IMG/VR virus record: IMGVR_UViG_3300025759_000171
Coordinates: 1-45,026 of that record
Direction: 5' to 3' (one strand)
DNA: 45,026 nucleotides
Source of the DNA: a virus
Position numbers and translations under genes: made by a program. The notes under the pieces are model-generated. The model searched no databases. It worked only from the letters and a program-made list of their open reading frames with translations, and was not told where the DNA came from. Each line of letters opens with the position of its first letter. Within the stretch, counting starts at the first letter, position 1. Below, piece by piece: positions 53 through 28,300 of this stretch.

Positions 53-490
53 TTGTACCGACACGAAGGATTCAAACAGCGTGAAACCTTTCACGTTCAA
101 GACATGATTCGCAAACAAACGCCACCGCCGTTGGGCAATGAACCAACCAATGTTTCCACGGCTCCTGCCAAAGCCTTGATCGACAGTATCGATTTGGGAT
201 TGGCTGCTTTAGCAGACGAAATTGCTCAACTTAACACCCTTATGGGTCAAGCAAGATCTGCAAATGTTGATGCAGCAACGACTTTCATGTTGCAAACAGC
301 AGGAGAGCAAATGCGAGCAAAAGTCCTTTCCTGTCAAGGAGATGCGGCAAAGATTCGTGAGGCTCATGCTTCCGTTTTACAAGTCAATCCAATGGTTCCA
401 ATGGGAATGGGCAATGACCCAATGGCGGCGGCAAACACACAACAACCTCCAATGAATATGCCACCAGGCATGATGGGAGGTGGAATGTGA
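53..490 (+). CDS. Small Met/Pro/Gly-tailed protein of the capsid block, unknown function
   Basis: 145 residues, no recognised family. The start is a TTG at 53, six bases after GGTGA (42-46); no ATG with a comparable binding site lies near. The middle (about residues 40-110) is Ala-, Gln- and Leu-rich and predicted helical. The last 35 residues are unusual, rich in Met, Pro, Gly, Asn and Gln, and end in MMGGGM, which suggests a flexible tail. The stop overlaps the next start as TGATG, so the two are probably translationally coupled. By position between the presumed portal side and the protease it may be a minor head or assembly factor; this is inference only. Confidence 0.7.
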   Translation: MYRHEGFKQRETFHVQDMIRKQTPPPLGNEPTNVSTAPAKALIDSIDLGLAALADEIAQLNTLMGQARSANVDAATTFMLQTAGEQMRAKVLSCQGDAAKIREAHASVLQVNPMVPMGMGNDPMAAANTQQPPMNMPPGMMGGGM

Positions 491-828
491 TGTCAAGTGA
501 AGACACGACCGCCGCAGATCAGGTTGAACTCATGAAAGAGTTGGTTGGCGAAGTACGCAATATGCGTCAACGAATTGAGGCTCTCGAACAAGAGAATTCA
601 AACTTGAGAAAGGCCGTTGATGATCCTGAAACCATTATGCGAAAGCATGGGTGGAAGAAATTTCAAACACCTCATGCAGATGAAACATTTGATCCATTGA
701 ATCGAGCGGTTGCTGACAGTAGCGCATTTTCAAGCCCATTTGAAGGAAGTGGAGATTTGTTCCTAAAGTCAAGGGACGAACAACTTCGAGAATGGGAAGA
801 CGCAGAAAGACAGGTGAAATCACGATGA
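490..828 (+). CDS. Small coiled-coil protein, unknown function
   Basis: 112 residues from ATG 490, which is preceded by GGAGGTGG (476-483) and overlaps the upstream stop as TGATG. A GTG codon one triplet earlier (487) is possible but sits too close to the binding site. Residues about 8-45 form a clear heptad pattern (VELMKELVGEV..MRQRIEALEQEN), a short coiled coil likely to dimerise or trimerise. The rest is charged, with an aromatic/Pro-rich middle. The end overlaps the next gene as ATGA. It resembles the small coiled-coil proteins often found between packaging and capsid genes, but no specific function can be assigned. Confidence 0.75.
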   Translation: MSSEDTTAADQVELMKELVGEVRNMRQRIEALEQENSNLRKAVDDPETIMRKHGWKKFQTPHADETFDPLNRAVADSSAFSSPFEGSGDLFLKSRDEQLREWEDAERQVKSR

Positions 829-1712
829 GCGCACAATGGTACGATCCAATGACAAATTCCCAAGAGGGTATATTGCTCACAGAAGTCCGAGATCTTTTGA
901 AAGCGGTCAAAAACAAAAAGAAGGCTGATCTTGACAAAGATGGCAAGTTGTCGGGCTATGAAAAGAAACGTGCAAAGGCAATTGAAGGATCAATGGCGAG
1001 AGAAGGATACAAATCGGATCGAGGCCAAAAGCCAGCACCGAAGTTGCCAACTCCAAAAAAAGGCAAGACCGTTATCAAAGGCGATGCATCCGATAATTGC
1101 CCTCGATGTGGTGCAAATCCTCACGAAGAATGTGGAATGCCTGGTCGAAGCGGAGAGCATCAAGCAATCAATTGCACATTGAATCCAGTTGCTTTTGATT
1201 CTCGAATGGATGATCTGCGTGAACCAGAATCGATAATGGAACACCTTGATGAGAATCATGGCAACATGAAGTTGCCATCGAAAGTGCGTGGAATTCTCAT
1301 TCGAGGCAATGAAGAAGGATCATCAGTTGACGATTTGCAAAAGTACGAAAAAGAGCCAAGTTCAATGAACAGCGTCCCTCGATTCCAAAACGTGGATGGA
1401 GGAATCCCTGTGATCGCACGTGGTTTCACAACCAATCAAAGGATCCCTCACACCCAAGACGGAATCAAAAAGAAAATCGTTAGCGAGAAAGCCAAGATCC
1501 CTGCTTACTCTCAACAGGGATATACTGCAAAAAGCAGTTCCCTACATATGCACTTAACAGATGGGGGCAATGCAGGAAACATTCCAAACCTTGCACCAAT
1601 TGAAGAGAGGCTTGCTTCTTTGACAAAGGGCGCATCTAAGGTCAACCAAGGCGTGATTGGCGAGATTGAGGGTCTTATCAAGCAAGTGAAAGATCATTTG
1701 GCCTCCGATTGA
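825..1712 (+). CDS. EF-hand-like and zinc-finger protein of the capsid block
   Basis: 295 residues from ATG 825, seven bases after GGTGA (813-817); an ATG at 792 would also be in frame but lacks a binding site. Residues 35-46 (DLDKDGKLSGYE) fit the 12-position EF-hand calcium loop exactly: Asp at 1, 3 and 5, Gly at 6, Glu at 12. A zinc-finger-like cluster follows: C92-x2-C95, C103 and H112. The remainder is low-complexity, with Lys/Pro-rich stretches and a C-terminal helix. Only one EF loop is visible, so calcium binding would be unpaired or dimeric (compare dockerin-like or excalibur-like single loops). Location before the protease and capsid suggests a virion or assembly role, unproven. Confidence 0.75.
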   Translation: MSAQWYDPMTNSQEGILLTEVRDLLKAVKNKKKADLDKDGKLSGYEKKRAKAIEGSMAREGYKSDRGQKPAPKLPTPKKGKTVIKGDASDNCPRCGANPHEECGMPGRSGEHQAINCTLNPVAFDSRMDDLREPESIMEHLDENHGNMKLPSKVRGILIRGNEEGSSVDDLQKYEKEPSSMNSVPRFQNVDGGIPVIARGFTTNQRIPHTQDGIKKKIVSEKAKIPAYSQQGYTAKSSSLHMHLTDGGNAGNIPNLAPIEERLASLTKGASKVNQGVIGEIEGLIKQVKDHLASD

Positions 1713-1725
1713 AGGGGGTTTCAAA

Positions 1726-4700
1726 TTGACAACTCAAATTGATAGACTGAGAACCGACGCAATTATTGCGATTCATCGAGGTGTTGACTTCAACTTCGAT
1801 CCGTTCTTAAAATCAATTGAAAACGCAGATCTGGTTAAGGAAGACATGGCAACTCTTCTCGCTATGGGTATGCAAAAGCCAGAGTTCCGAATGAATGACT
1901 TATCATCGGCAATGCCTGTTTCAATGATGAAAATCCCAGAATATGCTGATTTCACCGCAGGTCATACAAAAATGACCAACGACCCTGTACGAGATTGGAT
2001 GTCGGCAGCAGTTGACAACCGCTACGGAGAGCATCACCCCTTTGGAGTCAAATCAAACAGTTGTCCTCTGCTTCATGGATCCGTCCACGGAGATCCTGCT
2101 TATGCAGACCATATTGCTTATGCGATGCCAAACTTGCAGACTATCGCAGAAAAAGAACGTGTTCTCGACTACGACAAAATGTTCTATGGAGATCCAAAGG
2201 AAACGATGTACGATCTCCACAAAAGAGATAGGAATCGATACTCTCATGTTAGCGATGAGGATTATGAACAAGGCAAAATCAATGAATGGAAAACCGAATT
2301 AGGCTTTGCTCCTTTTTTGTTTGGGCTTGAATACAATACTCACGAACAACGAAAAGCGTTTTTTGATTTGTTGGAAGCCATGAACGGAACGGAACCAGGA
2401 TCTCCCGATTTCCGTTATTTCCAAAACAAAATGCAAGAAAAGGCAGGTTTGTCTTGGGGTCGAGCATTGAGGAATTGGAGGGAACGATTTACGCCTCTCC
2501 TTGGTTGGTGGCTCCGCCCAAGTGATCGGCACGGACCTGTAAGCCCTCTTGGTCTTGGACAGGGCATGATGGCAAAGGCAAACAACGCCGATGAACATAT
2601 CATGAGTCCGTGGGTTCATGAAAATGGCAGTATTCAAGAATCAACAAACCACCATTGGTGGGAACTGTTCATGCCATGGGGTGGAGTTGGTCGAAACGTG
2701 GAATCCCTGCGCCAAATGTTTGAGCAATCGTATCCAAAGTGGTTCGGATCTGGATGGCTATCGGATATGCTGATAAATCAAAACGCATCCGCTTTCATGC
2801 AATACGATCATGATGGGGGAAGCCATTTCCCTGTTGCTGTAAATCATCCAGCAACTGATTATCATCCTTCTCGATCAGCAATCAAGTCATCGTTGGGCGA
2901 TAGCGAATTCTTTGAACAACGCAGAGCAAATTGGAGCCATGGTTCAAACCTTCACTTTTTGCATCCAAGTGAGATCAAAGGCCAAGGTGGTCGAATGATT
3001 GTTCCAAGCGATAATCTCATGTTGAGTCGATTAGGGCTTTCTTTGGCAGGTCAAGCCGATATGGGTTCTCCTCGAATTGGGATGTTTAGGGAAGATCACC
3101 CCTCCTCTTCAAAAGAATACTGGGACGCTCACAATGCACTTTATGCAGCGAATGATATGCATTTGGGGCAAGCGATGTCCAATATGGCTATGCGTGTCAT
3201 GAAACAATTTGGCTCAGGGGCAATCAATCCTACTGATCCTCAAAATGCTGAACAGTCCTTGATCGCAAGAGGAAACCTTCAACAAATTGCAAGTGCTGCT
3301 GACTTTGCATTGAAGAAAATGGCAATGGGCGAAACATACCGTGCTTTGGCACCTGGTTATGATGAAATGGGCAATATGAACATGACTGTCAAACCTTTGG
3401 GTCCAGTCCATCCAATGTCTCACGCAACATCTCCTCCCGTGTATAATACGGGGAATACTCACCTTTGGGGGCATGAGATGCCAACAAATTTGACATGGAA
3501 GTATGATCCAAAGCAAGAAGGAATTGTATTTGGAATGACGGATGAACCATTCCAGATCATGCAAAGAACTGCTCATGAAAAACACGTGGACGCCGTGCTT
3601 CCAGGGTTGATCGACCTCCCCGTAGGTGCAAAACAAAAAGACATTCAAGCATTGAGTTCGCTCGATAGCCGTGGCCTATCTCCTTTGGCGACAGGAGATA
3701 TTCACAAATCCGAAGATTACAAGGCAACTGGGGTTTTCAAAACCAAGATAATCCCTGCTTACACCATTCATAACCTTGATGAGATGGAAAAGTTGCGAGG
3801 CTTTACAGGAGATTGGGTTGTTCAAAAAATGCCCAAAGGCGAACGGATGTTTATTGAAAAGAAAGGCAATCACATCAAAGGAGGAAAGTTGCCATCCGAT
3901 GTTAGGAAGAACCTTCGTGAGATCACAGGAGACTTCACTTTCGATGCTTACCTTGATGATGGTGTGCTTCATGTTGTTGATCTGCTCGTTCACAAAGGTA
4001 CAGATATGCACATGGAACCTTTGGAAGATCGCGTGAATGCATTGAGGACTCTTTACGATTCAACTCCTCAAGTGCATTTTCCAATGCCCACCAATTGTGT
4101 ATCCACCGATCAAGAGGGACTGTTGAAAACAGTCAATGCTTTGGATAAAGAGGAATTGCTTATTCGAGACTCAAAGTCCACATTCATGAAGGAAAAAGAG
4201 GTTCATCCCAAATGGATCCGATATGCGAAAGAGGACATCGCCAAGGCGTTTTATCCTCCAATGCCCGAAGTTATGGTTTATCCTAATCGAGTAAAGTTGG
4301 CGTATCCATCCATCATTGAACCAGTTGTATTCAAAGGATCATATGATCAAGGTACTTTCAACATCGATTCAATTGAAGGCAATGATGCATTGTTTGCAAA
4401 GGCAGAAAGAGATTCACCTATTTGGGGGCCTGTTGCAATTTCTCTGTTCAAAACAGCGGTTGCATCATCTGGGGGCGCATTTACTTCAAGTAGCGCAGGT
4501 ACTCACAACCCTCTTCATTCTTCGAGGAAACGAAAACCAAAGAAATTGAAGATTGCAAAAACTGCTTTACTCCGTGCGCCAGCAATTGAAGGCGTAGGAG
4601 AAGAAGGAGACAATGTTGCGAGTACGATGAAACAGGTTCGTTCTGCAATCACAAGCGATAACAAGGCCAAGACGACTAAAAAATTGTTGAGCATGGTCGA

Positions 4701-5136
4701 GGGATTAAACAAAAAAATGCTTGAGATGTTCGCAGGAGAGTATGGCATTGAGCGAACAGAAGATGGCGACAAATGGACAGTCAATGAGGCAATTGATGAT
4801 GACATCATTGAAAGGATGTTCCCTCGCATGAACCGTATTTCACCAGATGGGGGTGCTTGGTCGGGTATGCAAGCAGACATAACTGCGCCAACTGGTCCTA
4901 CAAAGTTGATTGATGAAAGTGCCACCACCTTTTACGATCCTAAAGAACAGGAAGAACCAATCGAAACAGATCCAATTTATCATCTCAAAGTAAAGGATGG
5001 AGAAGATCAATCCACCACGTTGGATGTGGCTGATGGGGAGGCCACACTTCGAGTTCCAAGAAAAACACAAAAGGAAATGGAAAATGAGCAAGAAGTGGAG
5101 CCGAGTGATCGTTCCGAGGCAGATGACTCGTACTGA
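1726..5136 (+). CDS. Large structural-region protein with a degenerate DNA-ligase-like domain
   Basis: 1136 residues starting at TTG 1726 after a G-rich binding site (1713-1718). Residues 1-680 are rich in His, Trp, Asn and Gly and match no family I recognise. Residues about 685-835 follow the order of ATP-dependent ligase/nucleotidyltransferase motifs. D696-W697...G705-E-R707 corresponds to motif I, with Met702 where the adenylated Lys should be. F739-D740-A-Y742 corresponds to motif III, followed by a V-V-D-L-L strand and a P-L-E-D-R helix. E809-E-L-L-I-R814 corresponds to motif IV with Arg for Lys, and W830-I-R832 to the last motif. The C-terminal 220 residues are charged and partly coiled. 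It lies directly upstream of the capsid protease, so a head or portal-vertex role is plausible. The ligase likeness is my motif reading, not a database result. Confidence 0.7.
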   Translation: MTTQIDRLRTDAIIAIHRGVDFNFDPFLKSIENADLVKEDMATLLAMGMQKPEFRMNDLSSAMPVSMMKIPEYADFTAGHTKMTNDPVRDWMSAAVDNRYGEHHPFGVKSNSCPLLHGSVHGDPAYADHIAYAMPNLQTIAEKERVLDYDKMFYGDPKETMYDLHKRDRNRYSHVSDEDYEQGKINEWKTELGFAPFLFGLEYNTHEQRKAFFDLLEAMNGTEPGSPDFRYFQNKMQEKAGLSWGRALRNWRERFTPLLGWWLRPSDRHGPVSPLGLGQGMMAKANNADEHIMSPWVHENGSIQESTNHHWWELFMPWGGVGRNVESLRQMFEQSYPKWFGSGWLSDMLINQNASAFMQYDHDGGSHFPVAVNHPATDYHPSRSAIKSSLGDSEFFEQRRANWSHGSNLHFLHPSEIKGQGGRMIVPSDNLMLSRLGLSLAGQADMGSPRIGMFREDHPSSSKEYWDAHNALYAANDMHLGQAMSNMAMRVMKQFGSGAINPTDPQNAEQSLIARGNLQQIASAADFALKKMAMGETYRALAPGYDEMGNMNMTVKPLGPVHPMSHATSPPVYNTGNTHLWGHEMPTNLTWKYDPKQEGIVFGMTDEPFQIMQRTAHEKHVDAVLPGLIDLPVGAKQKDIQALSSLDSRGLSPLATGDIHKSEDYKATGVFKTKIIPAYTIHNLDEMEKLRGFTGDWVVQKMPKGERMFIEKKGNHIKGGKLPSDVRKNLREITGDFTFDAYLDDGVLHVVDLLVHKGTDMHMEPLEDRVNALRTLYDSTPQVHFPMPTNCVSTDQEGLLKTVNALDKEELLIRDSKSTFMKEKEVHPKWIRYAKEDIAKAFYPPMPEVMVYPNRVKLAYPSIIEPVVFKGSYDQGTFNIDSIEGNDALFAKAERDSPIWGPVAISLFKTAVASSGGAFTSSSAGTHNPLHSSRKRKPKKLKIAKTALLRAPAIEGVGEEGDNVASTMKQVRSAITSDNKAKTTKKLLSMVEGLNKKMLEMFAGEYGIERTEDGDKWTVNEAIDDDIIERMFPRMNRISPDGGAWSGMQADITAPTGPTKLIDESATTFYDPKEQEEPIETDPIYHLKVKDGEDQSTTLDVADGEATLRVPRKTQKEMENEQEVEPSDRSEADDSY

Positions 5137-5141
5137 TTTCA

Positions 5142-5151
5142 TTTTTTTTTT
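5142..5151 (+). terminator. Oligo-T tract, possible archaeal transcription terminator
   Basis: Ten consecutive T residues lie six bases after the stop of the 1136-residue gene, in one of the largest gaps of the window (5137-5194). Archaeal RNA polymerase terminates at such oligo-T tracts without needing a hairpin; I see no strong stem before it. It would separate transcription of the 1726-5136 gene from the capsid block. Confidence 0.45.
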
Positions 5152-5163
5152 GTAAGAAGCGTT

Positions 5164-5170
5164 CATATAG
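5164..5170 (+). promoter_or_regulatory. TATA-like element before the capsid block
   Basis: CATATAG is centred about 28 bases before ATG 5195 and follows the T10 tract. Archaeal TATA boxes lie about 25 bases before the transcript start, so the transcript would begin almost at the start codon (leaderless), although a GGAAAGG site (5184-5190) is also present. Weak consensus; the spacing is the main argument. Confidence 0.3.
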
Positions 5171-5194
5171 GATTGCTTGATTTAGGAAAGGTTG

Positions 5195-6592
5195 ATGACG
5201 GCAGCAAACCTCTCAGTCTCCTCCGCAACATGGTCTGCGGATGGCTCTGATTTCTTGCTAAAATCCGCTGCATCAAATGGCGACTTATTCGTTGCAGGTT
5301 ATGCCTCAGTCGATATGGTCGATAAGCAGGGAGATCGAATCCCTGTACCTGCTCTTAAGAAAGCCTTTGACCAATTTATGGGGAACAAGGCATTCCGCAA
5401 TGTGCAATTGGCACACTCTGGTATTCAAGTTGGAGAAGTTGTCTCCGACTACAAGGATACCGAAGGACGATTGTGGAAATCCGAAGTTGATGATCACGGA
5501 TTGTTCGTTGTTTGCAAAATCCGCAACGACATCCAAAAAGCACGTGAAGTGCAAAAGCAAATCCGCAATGGAGAACTACGGGCGTTCTCGATTGGCGGTC
5601 AGGCACTATTCCGTGTCTCCAAAACCACACCCGAACTCGGTACTCATCGAGAGATTACCGACCTTGAACTCCATGAGATCACACTCTGCAAGAAAGGAAT
5701 CAATCCTGAAGCAGCGTACACGATCCTCAAAATGGATGGAGATGAAAACATGAGCAACACAGAAGTGCTAAACGAAATTAAAGCAGGTCTTTCCGAAGTC
5801 CTGAAAGAATTGAATGAAGGAAAGTCCGACAAGAAGACTGACGAGAAATACATGAAGGGCGACATGAAAAACGTCGAATGCGATGAAGATGGCAACCCCA
5901 TCGGATCCAAGGGCGACGACAAAATGAAGAAGGGCGAGCAAGATCTCGCTCTTGCTTACATCGACACCCTTGAGAAATTCGCTCACGAATCTGGTGTTGA
6001 TCTCGACGGCCTCCGTGATCACTTCGGTTTGGAAAAGGCATACCTCCCTGAACAAGGGTCTGGTGGCTTCTCTCACCGTGGTCAAGGCGACGAAGTTGGA
6101 TCTGGCGAAGATGCAACCGAACCTTCGTACCCCTCTCTCCCAAGTCCTGGCGGCAACCAATATGTCATCAAGGGTCCAAGTGTCCCACACATGAACATGA
6201 ATGCTCCACAAGGCAACACCAACGTGATCAAGTCCCTTACCCCAGAAACTTTGGAGAAGGGATACCGAACCTACGCTGCCCTCCGTGATGAAGAGGCAGT
6301 AAAGGGACTCGTTGAGAAAGAATGGGCAGAACGCTATGATGCAGAAACCGCTCAGGCTCTCGAAGTTCGCAAAGCCAACGATGTCGGCGTACAAATCAAC
6401 GCTCTCCGTGAGGAAATCGCAATGCTCAAGTCCGAGAATGTCGATCTCCAAAAGAGCGCAACCCCTGTGCCATCCGAACCAACAACCTCCATCCGAGTAC
6501 CAACACACGATGAATTTTCCCAGATGGGATCTGATCTCGAAGGTTGGCGAGCCGCAGAAGCACTTGCTATGCGAGCATTGCGAGGAGAATGA
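5195..6592 (+). CDS. Prohead serine protease with fused scaffold-like C-terminus
   Basis: 465 residues from ATG 5195, with GGAAAGG (5184-5190) upstream; a TTG one codon earlier is less likely. Residues 28-180 match HK97-type prohead proteases (U35/XkdF-like). His74 lies in LAHSGIQVGEV, Ser132 in GELRAFSIGG, and the third motif DLELHEITL (residues 156-164) precedes the typical G-I-N-P-E-A-A. The enzyme would cleave scaffold and capsid during head maturation inside the procapsid. Residues about 180-465 are charged and end in a coiled coil (about 395-425), as expected for a scaffold domain fused to the protease; no separate scaffold gene is seen. The major capsid gene follows after 24 bases, the classic order. 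Confidence 0.88.
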   Translation: MTAANLSVSSATWSADGSDFLLKSAASNGDLFVAGYASVDMVDKQGDRIPVPALKKAFDQFMGNKAFRNVQLAHSGIQVGEVVSDYKDTEGRLWKSEVDDHGLFVVCKIRNDIQKAREVQKQIRNGELRAFSIGGQALFRVSKTTPELGTHREITDLELHEITLCKKGINPEAAYTILKMDGDENMSNTEVLNEIKAGLSEVLKELNEGKSDKKTDEKYMKGDMKNVECDEDGNPIGSKGDDKMKKGEQDLALAYIDTLEKFAHESGVDLDGLRDHFGLEKAYLPEQGSGGFSHRGQGDEVGSGEDATEPSYPSLPSPGGNQYVIKGPSVPHMNMNAPQGNTNVIKSLTPETLEKGYRTYAALRDEEAVKGLVEKEWAERYDAETAQALEVRKANDVGVQINALREEIAMLKSENVDLQKSATPVPSEPTTSIRVPTHDEFSQMGSDLEGWRAAEALAMRALRGE

Positions 6593-6616
6593 AATCACAA
6601 AAGGAGATGATGAACA

Positions 6617-7771
6617 ATGACGCAAGGATACATCCGAACAATCGAAGACATGGAACGCCTTTACTACGGTGCTGGCGCAGGATCAAATGCATGGGCATAC
6701 AGCGGAACCGATCTGCTCAAAGCCGATTCACCATTGATGTCCACCACGACTGGAACCTACAACGCCATCTTTGGGCGTAAGGTTTGGTCGCAACTCAACC
6801 AAGAATTCAACGCCTTCTCGATCCTTCCTAAGAAGCCTTGGGAAAAGAGTGGATGGCGTGTCGTGGTTGGCAAGCCTGATGAAGCAAGCGGCCTTCCTGA
6901 AAACGGAACCCTTCCTGACTCCACCAAGCCAACTTTCCACGAAGTCAGCACCAAGCCAAAGACCATTGCAAGCAAGTTCGACCTGAGCGAAACTGCAATG
7001 TTCCTTGCAGACAAGGACGATGGACTTGGCGATGCACGTGCTGTGATCAAGATGGAAATGTCGAAATCTCACGCTGAGTCGATCAACAAGATGCTCCTTC
7101 GAGATGTCAACACCGTCGCTGGAAACAACTTTGAATCCATTGACCGTGCAATCTCCTCCTCCTTCGTTGAGAAGTCTGGAATGGACGACATCAGTTCAGC
7201 AGCAGTTCACAACCAATACAGTCTCACCCGAGACTCCTCTGGTGCTACTGCCCGTGAATGGTACGACGCCAACGTCGATGCTGGTGCAAACGGTGCTTCC
7301 AACGAACGCCCTCTCACTTTGAACATCCTCGATGGAATGTTCCGAAGCGTTTGGGAACGTGGTGGTCAGCCAAAGGTCATCCTAACTGGCTACGATACCG
7401 TTGAGAAGATCCAACAACTCCTCCAACCACAACAGCGATTTACCGAGATGAAGCGTGTTTCACCTTCCGTCAACGGTGTCCAAGGTGTTCCTGGTATGGA
7501 TGCTGGATTCGTTGTTGCAACCTACAACGGAGTCCCGATCATTCCTTCCAAGGACGTTGTTGATGATGGTCTTTCCCGACTATACTTCATCGACACCGAC
7601 TACACCTACTTCTGCACGGCCAAACCAACTCTTTACCACGAATCTGGTATCGAGACTGGCGATCCATTCGGTATCAACCGTCTTGGACAAGTCGGCCTAT
7701 TCCACACAATGGGTGAACTCTGGCAACTCTTCTATGGCGCACACGGCAAGATCCGAGATCTTAGTGCCTGA
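6617..7771 (+). CDS. Major capsid protein (HK97-fold)
   Basis: 384 residues, preceded by AAGGAGATGA (6601-6610). Position immediately after the protease, length, and the pattern of a long N-terminal helix/E-loop region followed by P- and A-domain-like segments (a central region with PKVILTGYDTVEKIQQLL, then VATYNGVPIIPSKDV and a C-terminal YHESGIETGDPFG) fit HK97-type capsid proteins. It forms the icosahedral shell. Codon use is distinctly biased: 13 of 14 Tyr codons are TAC, and Asn, Thr and Ala codons mostly end in C, unlike the tail genes, as expected for the most highly expressed gene. No long cleavable N-terminal delta domain is obvious, consistent with the scaffold being on the protease. 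Confidence 0.88.
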   Translation: MTQGYIRTIEDMERLYYGAGAGSNAWAYSGTDLLKADSPLMSTTTGTYNAIFGRKVWSQLNQEFNAFSILPKKPWEKSGWRVVVGKPDEASGLPENGTLPDSTKPTFHEVSTKPKTIASKFDLSETAMFLADKDDGLGDARAVIKMEMSKSHAESINKMLLRDVNTVAGNNFESIDRAISSSFVEKSGMDDISSAAVHNQYSLTRDSSGATAREWYDANVDAGANGASNERPLTLNILDGMFRSVWERGGQPKVILTGYDTVEKIQQLLQPQQRFTEMKRVSPSVNGVQGVPGMDAGFVVATYNGVPIIPSKDVVDDGLSRLYFIDTDYTYFCTAKPTLYHESGIETGDPFGINRLGQVGLFHTMGELWQLFYGAHGKIRDLSA

Positions 7772-7800
7772 GGATAAAAAAAACATGGAGATGATGAAAC

Positions 7801-8190
7801 ATGGCAAACACGAACCTAACAAGCGGAACAATTGTCGCTGATGTCCCAATGTGGGCTGGCGTACTCGAAGAAAGCAACACCGACTGGCTACAAACCCCAA
7901 TCGGAACGAACACGGCTGCTGGTGCAGTTCAAATGATGATCATTGATTTGGTCGTCGCAAGCAACACCGCAACCGTCTTTGATCTTGCTGATACTGCCTC
8001 TGGCACTCGACTGGCTTTCCAAGGCGACACCGCCCACGGAGCAGCCGTTCTTGCTGTCCTTGGCGTTGAGAACCGATCTGGTGGACACGAAGACATGACC
8101 TTGGTACGTGGAGAAGGAGCGCAAGTTCTCTTCACCGCACCATCTGGCGTCTCAGGCGACACAGTTCGATTGACCATTTTGTATCGCTGA
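7801..8190 (+). CDS. Small beta-rich protein, likely capsid decoration or stabilisation protein
   Basis: 129 residues from ATG 7801, preceded by GGAGATGATGAAAC, nearly the same leader as the capsid gene. The sequence alternates short hydrophobic strands with Gly/Thr/Ala turns and has no helix-forming stretch, consistent with a small beta-barrel. It shares the C-ending codon bias of the capsid gene, which suggests high expression. Genes of this size and place in tailed viruses usually encode capsid cement/decoration proteins; no specific family is recognised. A TATA-like run (GATAAAAA, 7773-7780) lies about 24 bases before the start. Confidence 0.72.
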   Translation: MANTNLTSGTIVADVPMWAGVLEESNTDWLQTPIGTNTAAGAVQMMIIDLVVASNTATVFDLADTASGTRLAFQGDTAHGAAVLAVLGVENRSGGHEDMTLVRGEGAQVLFTAPSGVSGDTVRLTILYR

Positions 8191-8200
8191 GGTGTTCCCT

Positions 8201-8569
8201 TTGGGATACACCATCACATATACTGGCGGCAAGCCGTATATCGAGTACGAGATCAATGGAAGAAAGTACGGTTTCGCACGTGGCGACCCCAAAACAAACA
8301 TTCCAGCCTCATGGATCGAAGAACGCATTCTTGGCGGCATCGAAAACGGATCAACTTCTTGGGAAGTTGTTAGCGATGCTGATGAGAAAAAGACTGAGGC
8401 CATGAAGGAAGTTGTTGAGGCTACTGTCGAACCTGTTGAGGAAGCACCTGCTGTTCCTGAAGACCTTTCGACATTATCCCGTGCCAAATTGATGGCTTTG
8501 TGCAAGGAACGAGGCATTGACACCTCGAACCGAGACAAGAAAGCCGATCTGCTTGAAAAGTTGGCATGA
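8201..8569 (+). CDS. Head-region protein with C-terminal SAP domain
   Basis: 122 residues if it starts at TTG 8201, which lies six bases after GAGGTG (8189-8194). A GTG at 8192 is in frame but lies inside that binding site. Residues 1-58 are beta-rich (YTITYTGGKPYIEYEINGR), then an acidic Val/Glu/Pro linker, then residues 90-122, a good SAP/HeH match: LSTLSRAKLMALCKERGI followed by K-K-A-D-L-L-E-K-L. SAP motifs are small helix-extended-helix DNA-binding modules, and in phages similar modules sit at the ends of virion proteins. A second SAP-ended protein occurs at 14322. It may contact packaged DNA or a partner protein at the head, unproven. Confidence 0.72.
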   Translation: MGYTITYTGGKPYIEYEINGRKYGFARGDPKTNIPASWIEERILGGIENGSTSWEVVSDADEKKTEAMKEVVEATVEPVEEAPAVPEDLSTLSRAKLMALCKERGIDTSNRDKKADLLEKLA

Positions 8570-8578
8570 GGGATCTAA

Positions 8579-9106
8579 ATGGCGAACAACAGGCAATCCA
8601 TTACTGATGGCGAGAATTACCTTTCTCGAAGCCGTGTCAATCGCCACGTGATCACACTTACTGGAGATAATCCTACGCAATTGGTGTCTCTTAATGGAAA
8701 AGTCTCCAAAGTCGTTGTTGATGCATCTCAAGCATCATTGGCGATTGGATCTGGAAATACTGGCGAACTCCAATTTTTGATGGACATTGAAGACGGTGGA
8801 GGGACTGAGATTCCTTACTTTGATACAATTGGAAAATTGAATTACACGGGATCGTCAACAGGTCAAGTGGCTTTGCTTGAAGTTTCCCCAGGATCAAACA
8901 GAGGTACTGCTGGATCGAAAAATTCCCTACATTTTGCCGTATCAACCACTTCGGCAGCAGAATCGGGCGGAACTGTGATCAACGAGCCAGCCGCATGGAA
9001 TGGCTTGGTTTGTGGTCAAGTACGCATAACGACTGATGTCGATCCTGGAAGCGGAACAATTCTTGATCCTGGTTCGGTTATTCGAGTCATTATCTATATG
9101 GAATGA
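8579..9106 (+). CDS. Beta-rich head protein, unknown function
   Basis: 175 residues from ATG 8579, nine bases after the previous stop, with GAGGGATC before it. No motif recognised. The predicted content is strands with many Gly/Ser/Thr and small loops, and the C-terminal strand is GSVIRVIIYME. Its composition resembles the 129-residue protein upstream, so it may be a second decoration or head-completion component. It is followed by a 49-base gap with a TATA-like box. Confidence 0.65.
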   Translation: MANNRQSITDGENYLSRSRVNRHVITLTGDNPTQLVSLNGKVSKVVVDASQASLAIGSGNTGELQFLMDIEDGGGTEIPYFDTIGKLNYTGSSTGQVALLEVSPGSNRGTAGSKNSLHFAVSTTSAAESGGTVINEPAAWNGLVCGQVRITTDVDPGSGTILDPGSVIRVIIYME

Positions 9107-18076: not shown

Positions 18077-20413
18077 ATGGCAATGCACACAATCCGTTCA
18101 AAGGCAATTCGATTCAATGGATTTACCGATGGAATCGTCGTCCCTACTGGTCAATTTAAGGAAAGTGGAATTAGCCTCCTAAGACCTGCGTATGGCGGTA
18201 CAACAGCAACAACAAAAAGCCACGCCACGAAGATTGGAAGGATTCATCTTCCAACTGAAAGCAATCCCTTAAACGCCATTTTAGGGCCATTCACAATTGA
18301 GGCATTTATTGTCCCAAATTATGGAGGGACTGTTGTTTCAAAACCAGGTTGCTTCTCTTTGGAAGTTGGCGATCCATTCAAGAATGCTCCCATCAAATTT
18401 AGCATTCATTGCATTGGTCGTGTCTTTACAGTTGCAACATCATTCGACGTCAATGTTCTCCTCGAATCACATTCGGGAACATACTCTGGAGGCCAGCACA
18501 AGCCAAATGACTTGACAGAGGGGGCGCAACCGTTGATGATGGTTTGCGCTCAATTTACGGGCGATGAGATGAAGGTCTTCGTGAACGGAAATTTGGTCGC
18601 CTCGTTAAATTTGATTGAAAACCGCATATTGGATAATGTTTCTTCGGATCTCTTCATTGGAGGCAGAGGCGGAGAGTATAGGGGCTTAATTGAAAGTGTT
18701 AGGATCTCAAGAGGCATAGTTGAGCCTTTGGTTCAGCCATTTGTGAACAACGATCAAACGATTGGTTTTTGGGATTTTAACGATGAAATCTCCTTGCCAA
18801 AATTCCACTTTTTCAACAATCGAAACGAAACAGCAGAGTCTCAAGGCAGAGATTCGTCAACCTATACCTCCCTGATTGAGACTCCAATGGTGATGCTCGG
18901 CTATGACTTTCAAAACATCAACGATTATGGGTACTTCAAAGTGTACGACCCTCCTGAACACGCCTCATCAAATGATGACAAATACACGGCACTTGAGAAG
19001 TTGGCGTCATACATCACGGGTCTTGATTTAATCGATGTCAAAAAACAAACATGGTACGCTACAAGCCTCAATGTGAATTCTGCTACATACGGAGGCTCAA
19101 CTGGATCTTTGGATTATTTGGCCTCTGATCGAATCAAGCAATCTTCATTGAATGCGGTTATCAATCAGTCAGGAACGCACCCCTTAACAGGTCTTACAAA
19201 AACCGCAACTGCACGTTTGGTTAATCTCACCAACGGAAACAACATCGCCACAGCAGTTGAATCCGATTTGGATCCAATGACAAACCCCATTGAGAGGGTA
19301 CGAATTATTTCCTTAGATTTTGCAAACAATCGAGTTGTTTGTCAATCGGTTCATTTGACAAATGATACGGGCGTGTCGGCCACCATCGAAAATCATCCAA
19401 AAGGCCAAGGCTTACTTTTTGACCATGCCGATGGAACTCCCATTTGGCTCACTTTGGGAAATGCTGATTTGATTGTTGACCCTGGAAACAAAAACACTTC
19501 GGCGGCAGTTGCAAATCAAGTGTCTCGACAAAAAGACGCTTTCACACGTGCAGAGTTCACTCAAGGACAACGCTTTGAAGATCGAAGTGGCAATCGGAAC
19601 ACAGCATATTTCACATCAGTTCAAAGCCGAATCACAACGGGTACTGCGGCTCTTACATCAATCAACCCTGAGCCAGATCCTCCAAAAGACAAGTTGCTAA
19701 TGTGGATTAACGCAGGGAGCATTACTGGTGTTTCCGATGGCGCAACATTAACTCATGTAGCGGATCAAAGTGGGAACCTATTTGGCCTTTATACGGTTGG
19801 CACATGGGTCTATGAGGCAAATAGTGCCTCCTTTAATTCAAAGCCAGCATTAAGGTGTACCTCCGCAGATGGTGCTTTGATCAATATAGGCACAAACGAT
19901 GGTGAATCAAAACAAATCACTCATACGGGTACTTCATTCACCGCCTTTTGGTTTGCAGCGGTGAATTACAATGCATCGTACAACACCGATCTCATTGGAC
20001 AAAACGGAGGCTCACCAAAAACATTCTTTGGGATTTCGGGGGCGTCAGGGAATTGGTTTTTCACGAACAATGGGACCACAACAACAAACGCTACATCCAC
20101 GGATTTGACAGTACCTGGCCTTTATTCAGCAACTTTTAATGCGGCAACAACAAACACGACTGTCCATTATCATTCAGCAACTGAAACCACTTTTGTCGCC
20201 AAAATCACAGGAACATTGAGTTTTGCAAATTCGCTTTTCACCATTTTTGGACGAGGGGCGTCATCGGATCCAGCGGCGAAAACAGGTACTGCAACGAACA
20301 AAGCAATTCAAAACACTCGCATCGCAGAGTTTCTGTTATACGAAAAGTCCATGACTGATGCTGAAAGGCAACAAGTGCAGGGGTACTTCCTCGACAAATA
20401 CACGGTGATATGA
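18077..20413 (+). CDS. Tail-tip protein with two LamG-like (concanavalin-fold) domains
   Basis: 778 residues if started at ATG 18077; GTG 18068 and ATG 18083 are alternatives and no strong binding site decides. The first LamG-like domain is at about residues 65-230, with typical segments GPFTIEAFIVPNYGG, DEMKVFVNGNLVASLNL and YRGLIESVRIS followed by G-F-W-D-F. The second is at about 530-778 (LLMWINAG...VADQSGNL...) and ends TRIAEFLLYEKSMTDAERQQ, a signature of sugar-binding jelly-roll domains. Between them lies an uncharacterised region. Such domains bind surface glycans, so it is a candidate host-recognition protein on the tail tip. It overlaps the next gene's start region (GGTGATATGATG). 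Confidence 0.75.
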   Translation: MAMHTIRSKAIRFNGFTDGIVVPTGQFKESGISLLRPAYGGTTATTKSHATKIGRIHLPTESNPLNAILGPFTIEAFIVPNYGGTVVSKPGCFSLEVGDPFKNAPIKFSIHCIGRVFTVATSFDVNVLLESHSGTYSGGQHKPNDLTEGAQPLMMVCAQFTGDEMKVFVNGNLVASLNLIENRILDNVSSDLFIGGRGGEYRGLIESVRISRGIVEPLVQPFVNNDQTIGFWDFNDEISLPKFHFFNNRNETAESQGRDSSTYTSLIETPMVMLGYDFQNINDYGYFKVYDPPEHASSNDDKYTALEKLASYITGLDLIDVKKQTWYATSLNVNSATYGGSTGSLDYLASDRIKQSSLNAVINQSGTHPLTGLTKTATARLVNLTNGNNIATAVESDLDPMTNPIERVRIISLDFANNRVVCQSVHLTNDTGVSATIENHPKGQGLLFDHADGTPIWLTLGNADLIVDPGNKNTSAAVANQVSRQKDAFTRAEFTQGQRFEDRSGNRNTAYFTSVQSRITTGTAALTSINPEPDPPKDKLLMWINAGSITGVSDGATLTHVADQSGNLFGLYTVGTWVYEANSASFNSKPALRCTSADGALINIGTNDGESKQITHTGTSFTAFWFAAVNYNASYNTDLIGQNGGSPKTFFGISGASGNWFFTNNGTTTTNATSTDLTVPGLYSATFNAATTNTTVHYHSATETTFVAKITGTLSFANSLFTIFGRGASSDPAAKTGTATNKAIQNTRIAEFLLYEKSMTDAERQQVQGYFLDKYTVI

Positions 20414-23400
20414 TGTCAACTCTCAACGATCCAACAGACGAAGGCTATGCTGGCATGGCAGGGATGACCGCTTACAACCACGTCGAAGGTGATTTCTTTT
20501 TGAGCAAGATGCCTCCATTTGACAATCAAGTGGTGAAGCAGACAATACAGGGCGTAGTTGACGAGTTTATTTTGAAAACGGATGAAATTGCTCTGCAATC
20601 CATATTCGCTGAGAATCAACCCGTGAGCATCACAGAAACAGTCTATTTTCATGAAACAACCAATGTGATCAATAAATCATTGACATCATACGCAACTGAT
20701 GCGTCAGGGAATCCCTTCAATCGAATTGTGATACAAGCAGGATCGGGAGAATACAATGCGTCCCTTGCAACAAACGTTTCGTCTTCCGTCCACGATGAAA
20801 TTGTGGCTTTGGCCGTGGAGGATGTCCGACCATTTATGATCAAAGGACTCGACATTGACCACGATGCAAATATCGTCAACGGGAAGCCAAAAAATGACGG
20901 TTATATTCGCCATTTGACTCCAAGTGAGGAGCCATTGATTGCTTCAATAAAGTCGCCAAGCATACTGACCACAAATGGGGGTCCGAGTCGAATTTTGGTG
21001 TATTATGATGCTATTGATCTCACAGGTGAAGTTGTGGCAGGTACAGGCTTGCCAAAGAGCGATTTTAATACAATCATGGATGACTATTACTCTGGTACAA
21101 AGAAGGCATACTTGGTTGTGCAGAAAACCGTACCTGCTGCATCCACGGTATTTTCAATTGGCGGGACTCCTCGAACCCTATCCGATATACTCCTCAAGCC
21201 TTACGCATCCCCTCCAGGGACTCCCTCCGATGTTCAACTTGAGATCACCTCAGCAGGAGGCTTGATTAGCATCCCTGCGTCAAATTTCAAACGTCCAATG
21301 AAGTCTCATGCATTGAAATCCTATGGGCAAGGTGGACGCATGGACTCGCCGTACATTGATGTAAGCGATTGCTTGATCTCAATGAAAAATTCAATACTTG
21401 GTTATGGTCGCCCACGGGCAATTGACAACCCCAACATTCCCGATCAAACATCTAATCCTTCACACCATGTTATGGTGATCACTCCTTCAACTGGAACTGA
21501 CTTAAAGCAACACAATTCAACAAAACAAACACCCGCTGGCCTTTCGAGGGCAAGTCTTCAAGTGTTCAATGTGATTGATAACACCCTGTCATTGAATGAA
21601 AACCTTGTTTTGGCATTGCCAGCAAATCGGAATCGATATGCAGTTTTCGACGATTTTACAACTTCTGCGAATTCAGTCAACCCCTCATTGATTACGATTG
21701 AAATCGCTCTTTTGTCTGGTCGAGCGGAGCAATTCAATGTCCAAGTCAAGGGCGACGAGGCAGAATTGGAGATACGAGGTCGATCAAAGTTGATGGACTT
21801 TTCAAACAAACAGGTTGACAGAGATCTCAACTTGGGTGAAGCCATACCAATCAAAGAGATTGGTGATTTAGGGACTCCGACCACCACGCTATCATTGGGT
21901 GGATTAGGTCAAGGTGGAATTGATGCAAGACCCATTTGGGACGAACACCGCAACTTGACAGGATGGAAGGATCGAATCGTTGGGACTGGAAATCCCTCTG
22001 TTCGCAATGATAAACAAACATCAACCCACTATGCCTCCACCAGGGCTTTGACAGAGATTCCCTTGTTCCCCTCAATGTTCTATGATGTGGAAAAAATACA
22101 TGGCGAGGGGAAAGAATTGCCCCATCCAAGTGGAATGGATTTTACAATGACAGTTGACGCAACCATGACCGCAATGAATCGCCCTCAAATGCAGCACATT
22201 GAAGGCAAAAATGCAATTGATTGGGGCATGAGGGATGTTGTTTCAGCAATACGGCTAAATCAGGATGTCTCCTTACTCATGTCCCATGTCAATTCATATG
22301 CCATACGCTGTCAACATTCGATAATTCAAGGCGTGATCACAGGGCATAACTTGACCCTTGGAACAACGAACTCCTACATTCAACTCGATGATGTTGAGGC
22401 TTTTGAAAATGAAGCAGGTTTAAGCATTGGCGGATCTGGCGTTTTGGATCAACCATGTTTTATCACCATTGGTGAAGGCATCATTACTGAGGATGCGGGG
22501 CAAGAACACGTGTCGCACTACATGATGAGAATACACAAGATCGACACAGGCACAAATCGAATTTACCCAAATTTGGCTTACGTGAGGACCGCTGGAGGGG
22601 ATTCTCCTGTGCGTACCTTTGATACAACTGCGTCAACAAGAGCCGATGCTCATATTTTTGTTGGAGCAGTTGTGATGATGGGCGGGATTATAGCAAATTC
22701 AAATCTCCACGCCAATGCTCCAAATTACAATGCAGCAGTTCCTACAACAGAGGGCATTCGAGATGCTGTTCGTGCGTGTTTAGGAGGCAATCCAGTTAAT
22801 ATCATGCATTACCCAAATTCACATCAATCTCCGCTCGCTAAGGAGTTGGTTTTGATCTTCAATGATCGAGTCAGTATGTCTGGTCTTGAATTTGACATTT
22901 ACAATGAATTTGGAGGGAAGAACGATGTTTATGCAAGGCTTCCAATTGAATGCATCCCCTATTTTGCAGGGTTGAAAGGAAAACATTCGGATGGATCGGC
23001 CTTAGATTATGTGATGCCTCAACAGATTCGATTTCGAGACATTGCCCTCAAATCGCAAGGTTTCAAAGATTGTGTTGATGAGGTGATTCGCACAATAAAC
23101 ATGAGCGGTCATCCTAAAGCAAAGAACAGTATCGGAAAAAGCGCATATGAAACGTTCCTTCAAAGCATTTTCAATTCAGGATCTCATTATGGATATGTTC
23201 GTGCCTTCTTGGGAAGTGAAGTGGAATCTAAGGACGGAGAGAAAGGATTGTCCATCGTGATCCATAGCACCGTACCTGGTGCTGCTGGCCGCAACTTTGC
23301 AGTATGGTTTGAGAACAGAAGTTCGTACCCTTACAGGCCAATTCAAGCATTTGGTTTTGGTGGCCTCTTGGCACAAAATAGTCGAACATATGGGGCAAAT

Positions 23401-25317: not shown

Positions 25318-25322
25318 TGTAA

Positions 25323-28300
25323 ATGGCAGAAGTATTCCCCCGTGCATTTTACCCTGCCAAGTATAGGCTGATGGGTAAAACCGCCGATGGAATGCCAAAG
25401 TCTGGAATCATGGCTATGCACATCACTTATCCCGATACCGAATACTCACATGATGACATAGAGGATTGGGAAATGGGGGTCAACTCAACTGATTGGCGAC
25501 AGGGAATCACCGTTTTGATACGAACGCCCTTGGCAACTGCTGCAATAGCCGAAGCAAAGAATGTCATTGCAATCGATCTCAAGCAACAAGCGGCAGACCA
25601 TGGAAGTGCAGATCATACCTATGATTTGGGAACTGAGGAAGCAACACGTTTTATTGCTGCTAAGATCAATTCTCGAAGAATCAAAATGGTCGGAGAAAGA
25701 GACAAAACCTCGTACCTTCGAGCAAAGTATGTCCGTCAATCAATGGACAAAAAATACAAGATTGAATCCTTGACATATACGAGTGGTTCGATTGTGGTCG
25801 CTAAGATCAAGACATTGAGTGGAACTGCTGTGCCAACTGAAATGATTGGTAAATTCCAATTGAAGGTTGGGATTGGAGCGGGAGGCGGGGTTAAAAAATT
25901 GAACGCAGGGACATATTCGCTTGCAAGTGAGCCTGTGTTTCTGTATCGTAGCGGGAATTTTGCTTATGTCAGCATGGCATCAACAGGTTATGCCTTTACC
26001 GCAAGTCCAACAGCAGGAGATGCCTTGGTTGGAAGTTCCGACATTACTTTGGAAACAGCAGATGATCCAGTCCACACCGTTGTCTTAGGATGGCAAAAAA
26101 TCAGTCCACATCAATCACATTATTATTGGGCAGAAGCAAATTTAGGCCCCGTAGTCCAAGGCGTTGGAACAATTGGTTTGCACAAATTGATTGCAAAACC
26201 AATGGACGGAGGCAACATGGGATTGCCTTCACCAAACCATGTTAGCCAAAACGGTCGAGAAACGACGTCTTTTACGGCGGTTGGGCCACAATATGGAAGA
26301 GGATACAATCGATTCAGCATCGAGGGATTAAATTCATGCAATATGCCTTCGATCCCCCCTCCTGATTATCATATCACTTCACCTCACATTGAAGGAATTA
26401 CTTCATTGCACCCCGATGTAGTCTCCGACATCTCCGCAAACAAGTTGCAGATTGAAAAGTTGGAATCTGGTGTGGAATTGCCAGTTGCAGCCACGGATCA
26501 CAAAATATCTCTTGAGAACGGGTACAATGGCACATTTTCATCAACTTCTGTGGCTGCATCAATTTACAATGATGGGGTTGAACCGTATTTGTCGAATTTC
26601 ACAATGGCAAATATCCATGTGTCGCACGGCATAAAGGATTCAAATCAAGAGGCTTATGCTCGCCCATTTAGGATGACAGGAACCATAAATCCAGATCGGG
26701 TTAGCGGTTTGCAGATCAGCAATGAAGAACGAGTCTTTGATGATATTGAGGTTCTCGACGATCAAGGAAATTCATTGGTGTTGAAAGGTAAATCTCCGTG
26801 GGGTACTGTGATTCGTGATTTCACATATTCAAACGAAAGAGAAAACCCTGAGACTGGTGTCGTTGAAGTCGGACCCTCGTCGCCTGGAGGGACATTAACT
26901 CCAAATCTCAAAATCCAATTGCCAAAACAAGAAGACATACCTGGCGGGATCTTTGTTCGTTCAGGCCATGATCGAGTGCAAGCATGGTCGAACAAGACTT
27001 GGGGGTTGGGAGGGTTATCTGCTCCAAATCCAAGAAAGGCAGGGGTCGCAGAAGAGGATAATGAAACGTCTCAATTTGATACTCATGATCGTATGTTGAT
27101 CTTCCATTGCCAACGAATACTTCACGATAAAATGGAACAGTACCATGGATTAAATCTCCGTAAGCCCAATGGCAACTCAAGTAGCGGTCAAACACGATTG
27201 TTTGCATCTCACCGCATATCCGATCACGCTGAAAGAGGAAGCGTATTGAAACAAACAAACAATGGTGTTGAAACAGGCAATTTGATCCCTCACCATCGCA
27301 TTCGCTTTGCGAGATATGGTCATTCTTTCATCACACCGACTTTACACAGAGGGACGCCTATGAGTATGAGGCGACAATTGCATCGATCTCATGGCTCTGC
27401 ATATTCCTTGATGTTTGAAGCAGAAACCGAATACAAACACCACGGCTTTGGAAGTGGAGACACGACAAATTCTGCAACTGTGTTTGAATTGGATACTCTC
27501 GAAGCAAAAGCAAGTTCCAATTATGCAACAGGATCATTCGCAGGAGATGGCTTGCCATTGAGTGAATTGAAAGGAGCAAGGCTTCCCGATATTGATGGAT
27601 CCTACACTTCTGTCAATCATCGCAACTTTTTGGATTATTTGTTCGCTCCAGGTCAGGAACACACTAAGGCAGAAGGCATAAGCCAATCTGTTGAGTTTGC
27701 ACTTGGATCTGCAACGCTTTCAGGGTCGAAGGCAGCAACGAGATTGACAGTCCAAGGAGGCACGTTGACCAAAAATAACCGCTTTGGTACTGCTAACGAG
27801 TTCATGATCAATGGATTCATGGTGAACCAGTATTTGGGCATGGGTGGTCGTTTGGAGCCGATTCGCAAGTTAAGTGCAGATGGCACAGGAAATTGGTTTG
27901 TTCGAGGATTTGCAGAGGGTGTGATTCGACCACGTGTTGCAACAGAGTTGGCGACTGTACCTCCTTTGTTTGCCCACGATCCAGAATTGCTGAACATGAA
28001 TGCTGCCCAAGTGAGTTTGAGCAATTCCATTCCAAGCACATCGTTTAGGAAGCCCACAGATGCAGATCATGGTTTGATCAAAGCAGCAGATACTTTCAGC
28101 GGAGCAACCCCAGACGCTTTCCTTTGCAATTGGCTGGCCGAATACAGCCATCCTTCTCTCTTTGGAACCAGCAGGGAGCATTTCCTCATGTTCCGATACC
28201 GTGAAGCAGGGATGCCTCGATCAAGAGATTACCCTGCCGTTAATGGTTTATTTTTACGCAATTCTTCACATCCAACCACCACGGCTCAACCATTGAAAAG

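What the first reader, a model, noticed from the sequence alone, without database searches (positions are those of the whole stretch)
3775..4235. Catalytically dead DNA-ligase-like domain inside a 1136-residue structural-region protein
Residues about 685-835 align by eye to ATP-dependent ligase motifs in order and spacing: DWVVQ..., GER (motif I), FDAYLDD... then VVDLL (motif III region), PLEDR (conserved helix), EELLIR (motif IV), WIRY (final motif). The adenylated Lys is replaced (Met702), Glu of motif III by Tyr742 and Lys of motif IV by Arg814. A pseudo-ligase placed immediately before the capsid protease suggests a DNA-end or nick-binding role in packaging or at the portal vertex. I know of no described example.
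Basis: partly seen in the sequence, partly recalled or inferred. Interest (0 to 1): 0.75.

Follow-up and report, generated by a model that had tools for sequence, protein, structure and literature searches.

The report
Dead DNA ligase in archaeal-virus head gene
Marine archaeal tailed viruses carry, inside a large protein encoded among their head-building genes, a conserved DNA-ligase domain whose catalytic residues are all replaced; the literature appears to list it as a working replication ligase, which it is very unlikely to be.

Summary
Residues ~672-838 of the 1136-aa ORF (window 1726-5136) fold as the nucleotidyltransferase (NTase) domain of ATP-dependent DNA ligases: the top PDB matches are all ligases, and the closest reaches Z 14.0 over 154 residues. 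The active site is dead: motif I Lys is Met702, motif III Glu is Tyr742, motif IV Lys is Arg814, and the motif V lysines are gone.

The domain is not a one-off. About 110 distinct homologues in three divergent clades of marine archaeal viruses sit in the same slot, between portal and prohead protease/capsid genes. The most divergent clade (1785-2147-aa proteins) passes Pfam's ligase cut-off and keeps DGxR, yet also lacks the nucleophile, motif III and motif V residues. The domain is under strong purifying selection.

One relative lies in a Poseidoniales (Marine Group II) single-cell genome, so these are magrovirus-type viruses. No other ligase was found in 25 related records up to 115 kb; the host genome has an NAD-dependent ligase. 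A paper places 'ATP-dependent DNA ligase' next to 'prohead protease' in a Group A magrovirus, so published 'replication ligase' annotations probably include this pseudo-ligase.

A non-catalytic binding role in head assembly or packaging is the best inference; nick or end binding is untested.

The parts
1726..5136 (+). 1136-aa slot protein between portal region and prohead protease; contains the pseudo-ligase domain
   Evidence: homologues in IMG/VR; gene order from the longer contig L020 that encodes an identical protein
1726..3705 (+). N-terminal ~660 residues, mainly helical with a beta section ~539-613; no family match
   Evidence: Full-length model; no Pfam or PHROG hit; Foldseek and VIA with the whole model returned only the ligase domain, so the fold of this part is untested
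3739..4239 (+). Pseudo-ligase nucleotidyltransferase domain, residues ~672-838
   Evidence: Model m6d20545abc1c, Foldseek and VIA; PF01068; profile against PDB sequences
3823..3846 (+). Degenerate motif I (residues 700-707, QKMPKGER against E-x-K-x-D-G-x-R); nucleophile position is Met702
   Evidence: Alignment to real ligases A4 and residue counts
3943..3951 (+). Degenerate motif III (residues 740-742, DAY against DGE); Glu is Tyr742
   Evidence: Tyr or Phe in 58/58 near sequences, Val/Phe/Leu in the second clade, Ile/Val/Met/Thr in 44/44 far sequences
3976..4032 (+). Motif IIIa strand VDLL (751-754) and PLEDR helix (765-769), the best-preserved ligase signature
   Evidence: PF01068 and hhalign matches centre here
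4150..4170 (+). Degenerate motif IV (residues 809-815, EELLIRD against EGxxxK); Lys is Arg814
   Evidence: Arg in 58/58 near and 41/44 far (Lys 2, Cys 1)
4210..4230 (+). Degenerate motif V (residues 829-835, KWIRYAK against W-x-K-x-K); Trp830 kept, lysines lost
4240..4440 (+). Beta-rich segment after the NTase domain (residues 839-905)
   Evidence: Strands at 848-884 in the models; some far homologues have an extra ~95-residue segment before it that did not match the ligase OB domain
4852..4902 (+). Conserved C-terminal motif GAWSGMQADITAPTGPT (1043-1059); far homologues end in GLGIDVGTPxESPxGPT
   Evidence: Invariant columns in A1 and A3; far sequences
792..1712 (+). Upstream 306-aa protein with a weak zinc-finger match (CPRCGANPHEECG)
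   Evidence: PF24623 E 0.005, below cut-off
5192..6592 (+). Prohead protease (Peptidase_S78)
   Evidence: PF04586 E 6.3e-10
6617..7771 (+). Major capsid protein (SU10/HVTV-1 type)
   Evidence: PF17236 E 7.8e-9; 33% identity to HVTV-1 and HCTV-1 major capsid proteins

Best explanation
The region is a pseudo-ligase: the NTase domain of an ATP-dependent DNA ligase, captured long ago by an ancestor of marine archaeal tailed viruses, fused into a large head-module protein and stripped of catalysis. Shown: homology and fold; loss of catalytic residues in every clade examined; conserved slot between portal and prohead protease/capsid genes; purifying selection; no other ligase detected in the related records. 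Inferred: (a) the protein belongs to the head (prohead, portal vertex, or a packaging factor); (b) the dead domain is a non-catalytic binding module, using the old cleft or surface to hold duplex or nicked DNA, a nucleotide or a partner protein during packaging or maturation. DNA is my first choice of ligand because the ancestor wraps nicked DNA and the protein is encoded between portal and protease genes. I hold that specific ligand at about 0.35, and the broader 'dead ligase, non-catalytic head-module part' at the confidence below.
For: Fold. Sequence: PF01068 subthreshold in the window's clade, over cut-off in far homologues; NCBIfam hits there are nearly all DNA ligases; far-clade profile against PDB E 1.5e-6 to an archaeal ligase; hhalign with shuffle controls. 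Dead site in 58 distinct near, 10 second-clade and 44 far sequences. Slot: TerL-portal-...-pseudo-ligase-protease-MCP in L020, same spacing before MCP in 20 contigs and the far clade. Selection: NTase dN/dS 0.02-0.07 in unsaturated pairs, like or below the rest of the protein; residues conserved in near and far sets (Trp697, Asp752, Asp815, His827, Trp830). No alternative ligase: PF01068, PF09414 and PF01653 in 15 near records and PF01068 and PF01653 in 10 far records; piecewise scan of three records of 90-115 kb found no further ligase, the only KxDGxR matches lying in helicase-like ORFs.
Against: Head location rests on gene position alone; no virion proteomics was available. DNA binding is unsupported by charge (window domain net -2, many homologues -4 to -9, although real ligase NTases are similar). 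The OB domain that completes a ligase clamp on DNA is not recognisable. The model is moderate (pLDDT 72.8). Motif I Lys survives in 36 of 58 near sequences and most of the second clade, so nucleotide handling is not excluded in those.
Confidence: 0.62

Rival explanations
1. Non-DNA ligand pseudo-enzyme: as in snurportin-1, whose cap-binding domain is an inactive guanylyltransferase-like fold, the dead NTase cleft binds a nucleotide, RNA cap-like end or protein, and the domain acts as an assembly or sensing module unrelated to DNA.
For: Snurportin-1 is the main non-ligase family next to ligases in the profile search of PDB sequences, and PF21974 scores near PF01068 in some homologues; the Gly of motif I and an Arg/His two residues on are kept. 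That snurportin is an inactive guanylyltransferase relative is from my own knowledge.
Against: No conserved ligand-specific residue set could be assigned; snurportin scores are below cut-off.
Confidence: 0.17
2. Packaged and ejected effector: the protein rides in the capsid and enters the host with the DNA, where the dead ligase domain competes at nicks or hinders host NAD-dependent ligase or repair.
For: In HVTV-1 the portal-protease interval holds large multi-domain proteins, one annotated zeta toxin and one with an HEMGH motif; the Poseidoniales host genome carries an NAD-dependent ligase.
Against: The HVTV-1 proteins are not homologous to this one; no ejection signal recognised; strong conservation across clades argues for a core rather than a host-specific role.
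Confidence: 0.12
3. Functional ligase, as the published annotation implies: the domain seals viral DNA by an unorthodox active site, for example Lys701 or Lys702 as nucleophile.
For: ICTV profiles list ATP-dependent DNA ligase among replication functions and no other ligase gene was found in the records searched; Lys702 persists in 36 of 58 near sequences.
Against: Motif III Glu lost in all sequences examined, motif IV Lys is Arg in nearly all, motif V Lys positions lost; nucleophile is Met/Val in part of the near clade and Trp/Tyr/Gln/His/Met in the far clade; head-module location; the host has its own NAD-dependent ligase.
Confidence: 0.06
4. Chance resemblance or a different fold.
For: Pfam scores of the window protein itself are below the curated cut-off; the model's pLDDT is moderate.
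Against: Independent agreement of fold, profile and over-threshold distant homologues.
Confidence: 0.03

Closest known systems
ATP-dependent DNA ligase NTase domain (PF01068; human ligases I, III and IV, Thermococcus ligases)
   Same: Fold and order of elements; motif IIIa strand, the helix after it, the Trp of motif V; in the far clade also DGxR
   Different: Nucleophile Lys, motif III Glu, motif IV Glu and Lys and motif V Lys replaced; embedded in a 1.1-2.1 kaa head-module protein; OB domain not recognisable
'ATP-dependent DNA ligase' of magroviruses (Group A contig_156409; Apasviridae, Aoguangviridae profiles)
   Same: Adjacent to the prohead protease gene in the one contig described (PMC7318539); same virus group; probably the same gene family
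   Different: Published as a replication/repair enzyme; catalytic residues and head-module context not discussed in the papers read. The reference genomes themselves were not in the collections, so identity is inferred
Snurportin-1 m3G-cap-binding domain (PF21974)
   Same: Inactive nucleotidyltransferase-fold domain reused for binding; weak profile similarity
   Different: Cellular nuclear-import adaptor; profile scores below cut-off
T4 gp63 (RNA ligase 1 / tail fibre attachment factor)
   Same: A nucleotidyltransferase with a virion-assembly role separable from ligase activity (PMC3004832)
   Different: Still an active RNA ligase, not part of the finished virion, acts on tail fibres; no homology test made
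HVTV-1 gp113-gp116 (Druskaviridae)
   Same: Large proteins in the same portal-to-protease interval of a virus with a related capsid protein
   Different: No detectable homology; annotated with other domains

Membership tests
ATP-dependent DNA ligase (catalytic NTase domain) | NTase fold of the ligase superfamily | tested here: met
   top matches DNA ligases, Z up to 14.0, 154 aligned residues, rmsd 2.8
ATP-dependent DNA ligase (catalytic NTase domain) | Score over Pfam PF01068 gathering cut-off | tested here: inconclusive
   Window domain 12.4 bits against 26.2; far homologues of the same protein 29.7, 27.0 and 26.4
ATP-dependent DNA ligase (catalytic NTase domain) | Motif I KxDGxR with nucleophilic Lys | tested here: not met
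   Window MPKGER (Met702); Met/Val in 22 of 58 near; Trp/Tyr/Gln/His/Met in 44 of 44 far although DGxR is kept in most
ATP-dependent DNA ligase (catalytic NTase domain) | Motif III DGE glutamate | tested here: not met
   Tyr/Phe in the near clade, Val/Phe/Leu in the second, Ile/Val/Met/Thr in the far clade
ATP-dependent DNA ligase (catalytic NTase domain) | Motif IV EGxxxK and motif V WxKxK | tested here: not met
   Motif IV Lys is Arg814 in 58/58 near and 41/44 far, Glu position variable; motif V lysines replaced, mostly by Leu/Arg at 832 and Ala/Arg at 834
ATP-dependent DNA ligase (catalytic NTase domain) | Following OB-fold domain with motif VI | tested here: inconclusive
   Window has only ~65 residues of beta structure after the domain; a ~95-residue segment in some far homologues scored no better than shuffled nulls against ligase OB
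ATP-dependent DNA ligase (catalytic NTase domain) | Nick sealing or self-adenylation | not testable with these tools
   Needs biochemistry
Magrovirus-type viruses (Magrovirales) of Poseidoniales | Host is Marine Group II / Poseidoniales | tested here: met
   The only hit in 84,980 prokaryote genomes is a Poseidoniales single-cell assembly, 42% identity over the full protein; the window's own host was not determined
Magrovirus-type viruses (Magrovirales) of Poseidoniales | Tailed-virus head module with HVTV-1-related major capsid protein | tested here: met
Magrovirus-type viruses (Magrovirales) of Poseidoniales | Placement in an ICTV family by reference genome comparison | not tested
   ON649702 and OR863078 are not in the collections

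The most novel reading that the evidence does not exclude
A whole lineage of abundant marine archaeal viruses domesticated a DNA ligase as a non-catalytic head component that recognises DNA nicks or ends during packaging, and has no ligase of its own, so published replisome inventories for these viruses include a ligase that is not an enzyme.
Probability: 0.3. Interest if true: 0.8.

Novelty: new variant of a known kind. Interest (0 to 1): 0.62.

Why it matters
Magroviruses are reported to be abundant in the surface ocean and are described as encoding most of a replisome, ligase included. If that ligase is a dead domain in a head-module protein, the claim of near-independence from the host needs revising: nick sealing would have to come from the host. 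It also adds a virus-assembly example of a pseudo-enzyme made from a nucleotidyltransferase, with three clades showing different states of active-site loss, so what a ligase fold is kept for after catalysis becomes testable.

Tried and rejected
Direct sequence search of the window domain against PDB and PHROGs gave nothing useful; only deeper relatives made the link visible. An OB-fold in far homologues looked plausible by eye but failed the shuffle control and is not claimed. Homology to HVTV-1 gp113/gp115 or to vir519 slot proteins: none. A second ligase elsewhere: PF01068, PF01653 and PF09414 searches negative apart from the domain itself; KxDGxR matches in the 115-kb and 90-kb records were helicase-like proteins. 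Recent capture from the host: 0 of 60 Poseidoniales-order genomes have PF01068, so not favoured; 37 of 60 genomes of the wider phylum do. Net charge as a test of DNA binding was uninformative. tblastn in the phage collection found no relatives. The N-terminal 660 residues gave no fold match because the ligase domain filled the lists; that is not evidence of a new fold.

Full report
What was checked. The finding concerns residues about 685-835 of the 1136-aa ORF at window 1726-5136. In the window, and in a longer contig that encodes an identical protein (L020), the gene order is terminase large subunit, portal (PF04860), small proteins including a zinc-finger-like one, the 1136-aa protein, Peptidase_S78 prohead protease, and a SU10/HVTV-1-type major capsid protein.

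The fold. Direct sequence searches are nearly silent: no Pfam hit for the whole protein and E 0.13 for the isolated domain, although PF01068 (DNA_ligase_A_M) was the family hit most often when 22 homologues were scanned (14 of 22, best E 0.0037). An AlphaFold2 model from those homologues (pLDDT 72.8) settles the fold: the listed Foldseek PDB matches are DNA ligases and two guanylyltransferases (88 matches at E <= 1e-3), and VIA-align gives Z 14.0 over 154 residues at 2.8 A to the ligase III NTase domain, with ligase I, ligase IV and archaeal ligases behind it. The full-length model gives the same domain at 661-840.

The sequence link is strengthened by intermediates. Searching outward from the capsid gene showed that the slot protein extends far beyond the window's own clade: a second clade at 38% identity, and a far clade of 1785-2147-aa proteins in contigs whose capsid proteins are only 33-39% identical to HVTV-1. 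Far-clade domains exceed Pfam's curated ligase cut-off (29.7, 27.0, 26.4 bits against 26.2), match NCBIfam ligase models, and their profile retrieves archaeal DNA ligases first among PDB sequences (E 1.5e-6). Profile-profile comparison with real Thermoplasmatota ligases scores well above 200 shuffled controls (39.8 against a maximum of 27.5; 42.1 against 29.9).

The active site is gone. In 58 distinct near sequences the nucleophile position is Lys 36, Met 20, Val 2; motif III Glu is Tyr or Phe in all; motif IV Lys is Arg in all; motif V lysines are replaced. In the second clade motif I keeps Lys in most but motif III is Val/Phe/Leu and motif IV Arg. In 44 far sequences DGxR survives in most, but the nucleophile is Trp, Tyr, Gln, His or Met, motif III is Ile, Val, Met or Thr, and motif IV is Arg in 41. 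So motif III Glu and the motif V lysines were lost, and motif IV Lys almost always, across all clades, while the nucleophile changed differently in each. The domain is not decaying: dN/dS is 0.02-0.07 in unsaturated pairs, and residues such as Trp697, Asp815, His827 and Trp830 are conserved in both near and far sets.

Who carries it. The only homologue among prokaryote genomes is in a single-cell assembly of a Poseidoniales archaeon, which makes these magrovirus-type viruses. That genome has an NAD-dependent ligase, and none of 60 genomes of its order has an ATP-dependent one. Within the viruses, PF01068, PF01653 and PF09414 searches of near records, PF01068 and PF01653 searches of far records, and a piecewise scan of three records of 90, 107 and 115 kb found no other ligase. 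The records may be incomplete and PF01068 is not fully sensitive (it missed several copies of the pseudo-ligase itself), so this is strong but not final; an intact ligase should be easily detected, as in 37 of 60 genomes of the wider phylum.

What the literature says. ICTV profiles of Apasviridae and Aoguangviridae list an ATP-dependent DNA ligase among replication and repair functions (PMC12999244, PMC10768690), and a survey reports a DNA ligase in almost all magrovirus genomes (PMC10160649). [quoted passage not shown] That adjacency is exactly the slot described here. The inference, not proven because the reference records were not available, is that the published ligase is, at least in Group A, this dead domain. 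I found no paper treating it as inactive or as a head-module protein.

Mechanism. What remains after catalysis is a ligase-shaped surface in a protein encoded between portal and protease genes. I judge a non-catalytic binding module used in head assembly or packaging most likely. Nicked or terminal DNA is the first-choice ligand, by descent and location only; nothing here demonstrates binding or virion location. Precedents exist for each half of the idea: T4 gp63 is an RNA ligase whose tail-fibre attachment role is separable from ligation (PMC3004832), and snurportin-1 is, from my own knowledge, an inactive guanylyltransferase-like domain used for binding; it also appears as a weak match. An ejected-effector role is possible, since HVTV-1 fills the same interval with unrelated multi-domain proteins.

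Verdict.

Noticed in passing
L051 (HVTV-1) 152-8940: In HVTV-1 the portal-protease interval holds unrelated large proteins: gp115 annotated zeta toxin (1313 aa) and gp113 with a TTSHEMGHAF motif like a metalloprotease. The interval may be a general site for large head-associated accessory proteins in this capsid lineage.
   Followed up: partly
L046 6978-7622: A 215-aa protein between portal and pseudo-ligase in one relative carries DUF6321 (E 3.7e-17) and DUF5872 (E 1.2e-10), domains of unknown function also present in several PHROGs.
   Followed up: no
window 4852-4902; L374 and L398 slot-protein C-termini: The slot proteins end with a conserved motif (GGAWSGMQADITAPTGPT in near clades, GLGIDVGTPxESPxGPT in the far clade), possibly a cleavage or docking site.
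   Followed up: no
L374 slot protein residues ~1604-1700: Some far homologues have a ~95-residue segment right after the NTase domain that looks OB-like by eye but failed a profile test; L398 and the near clades lack it.
   Followed up: partly
Poseidoniales genomes G020-G079: 0 of 60 genomes of the order have an ATP-dependent ligase (PF01068), whereas 37 of 60 drawn from the wider phylum do; one genome checked (G020) has an NAD-dependent ligase.
   Followed up: partly
window 20410-32855: Two very large ORFs (1635 and 2510 aa) follow the tail genes and may be tail-tip or fibre proteins.
   Followed up: no
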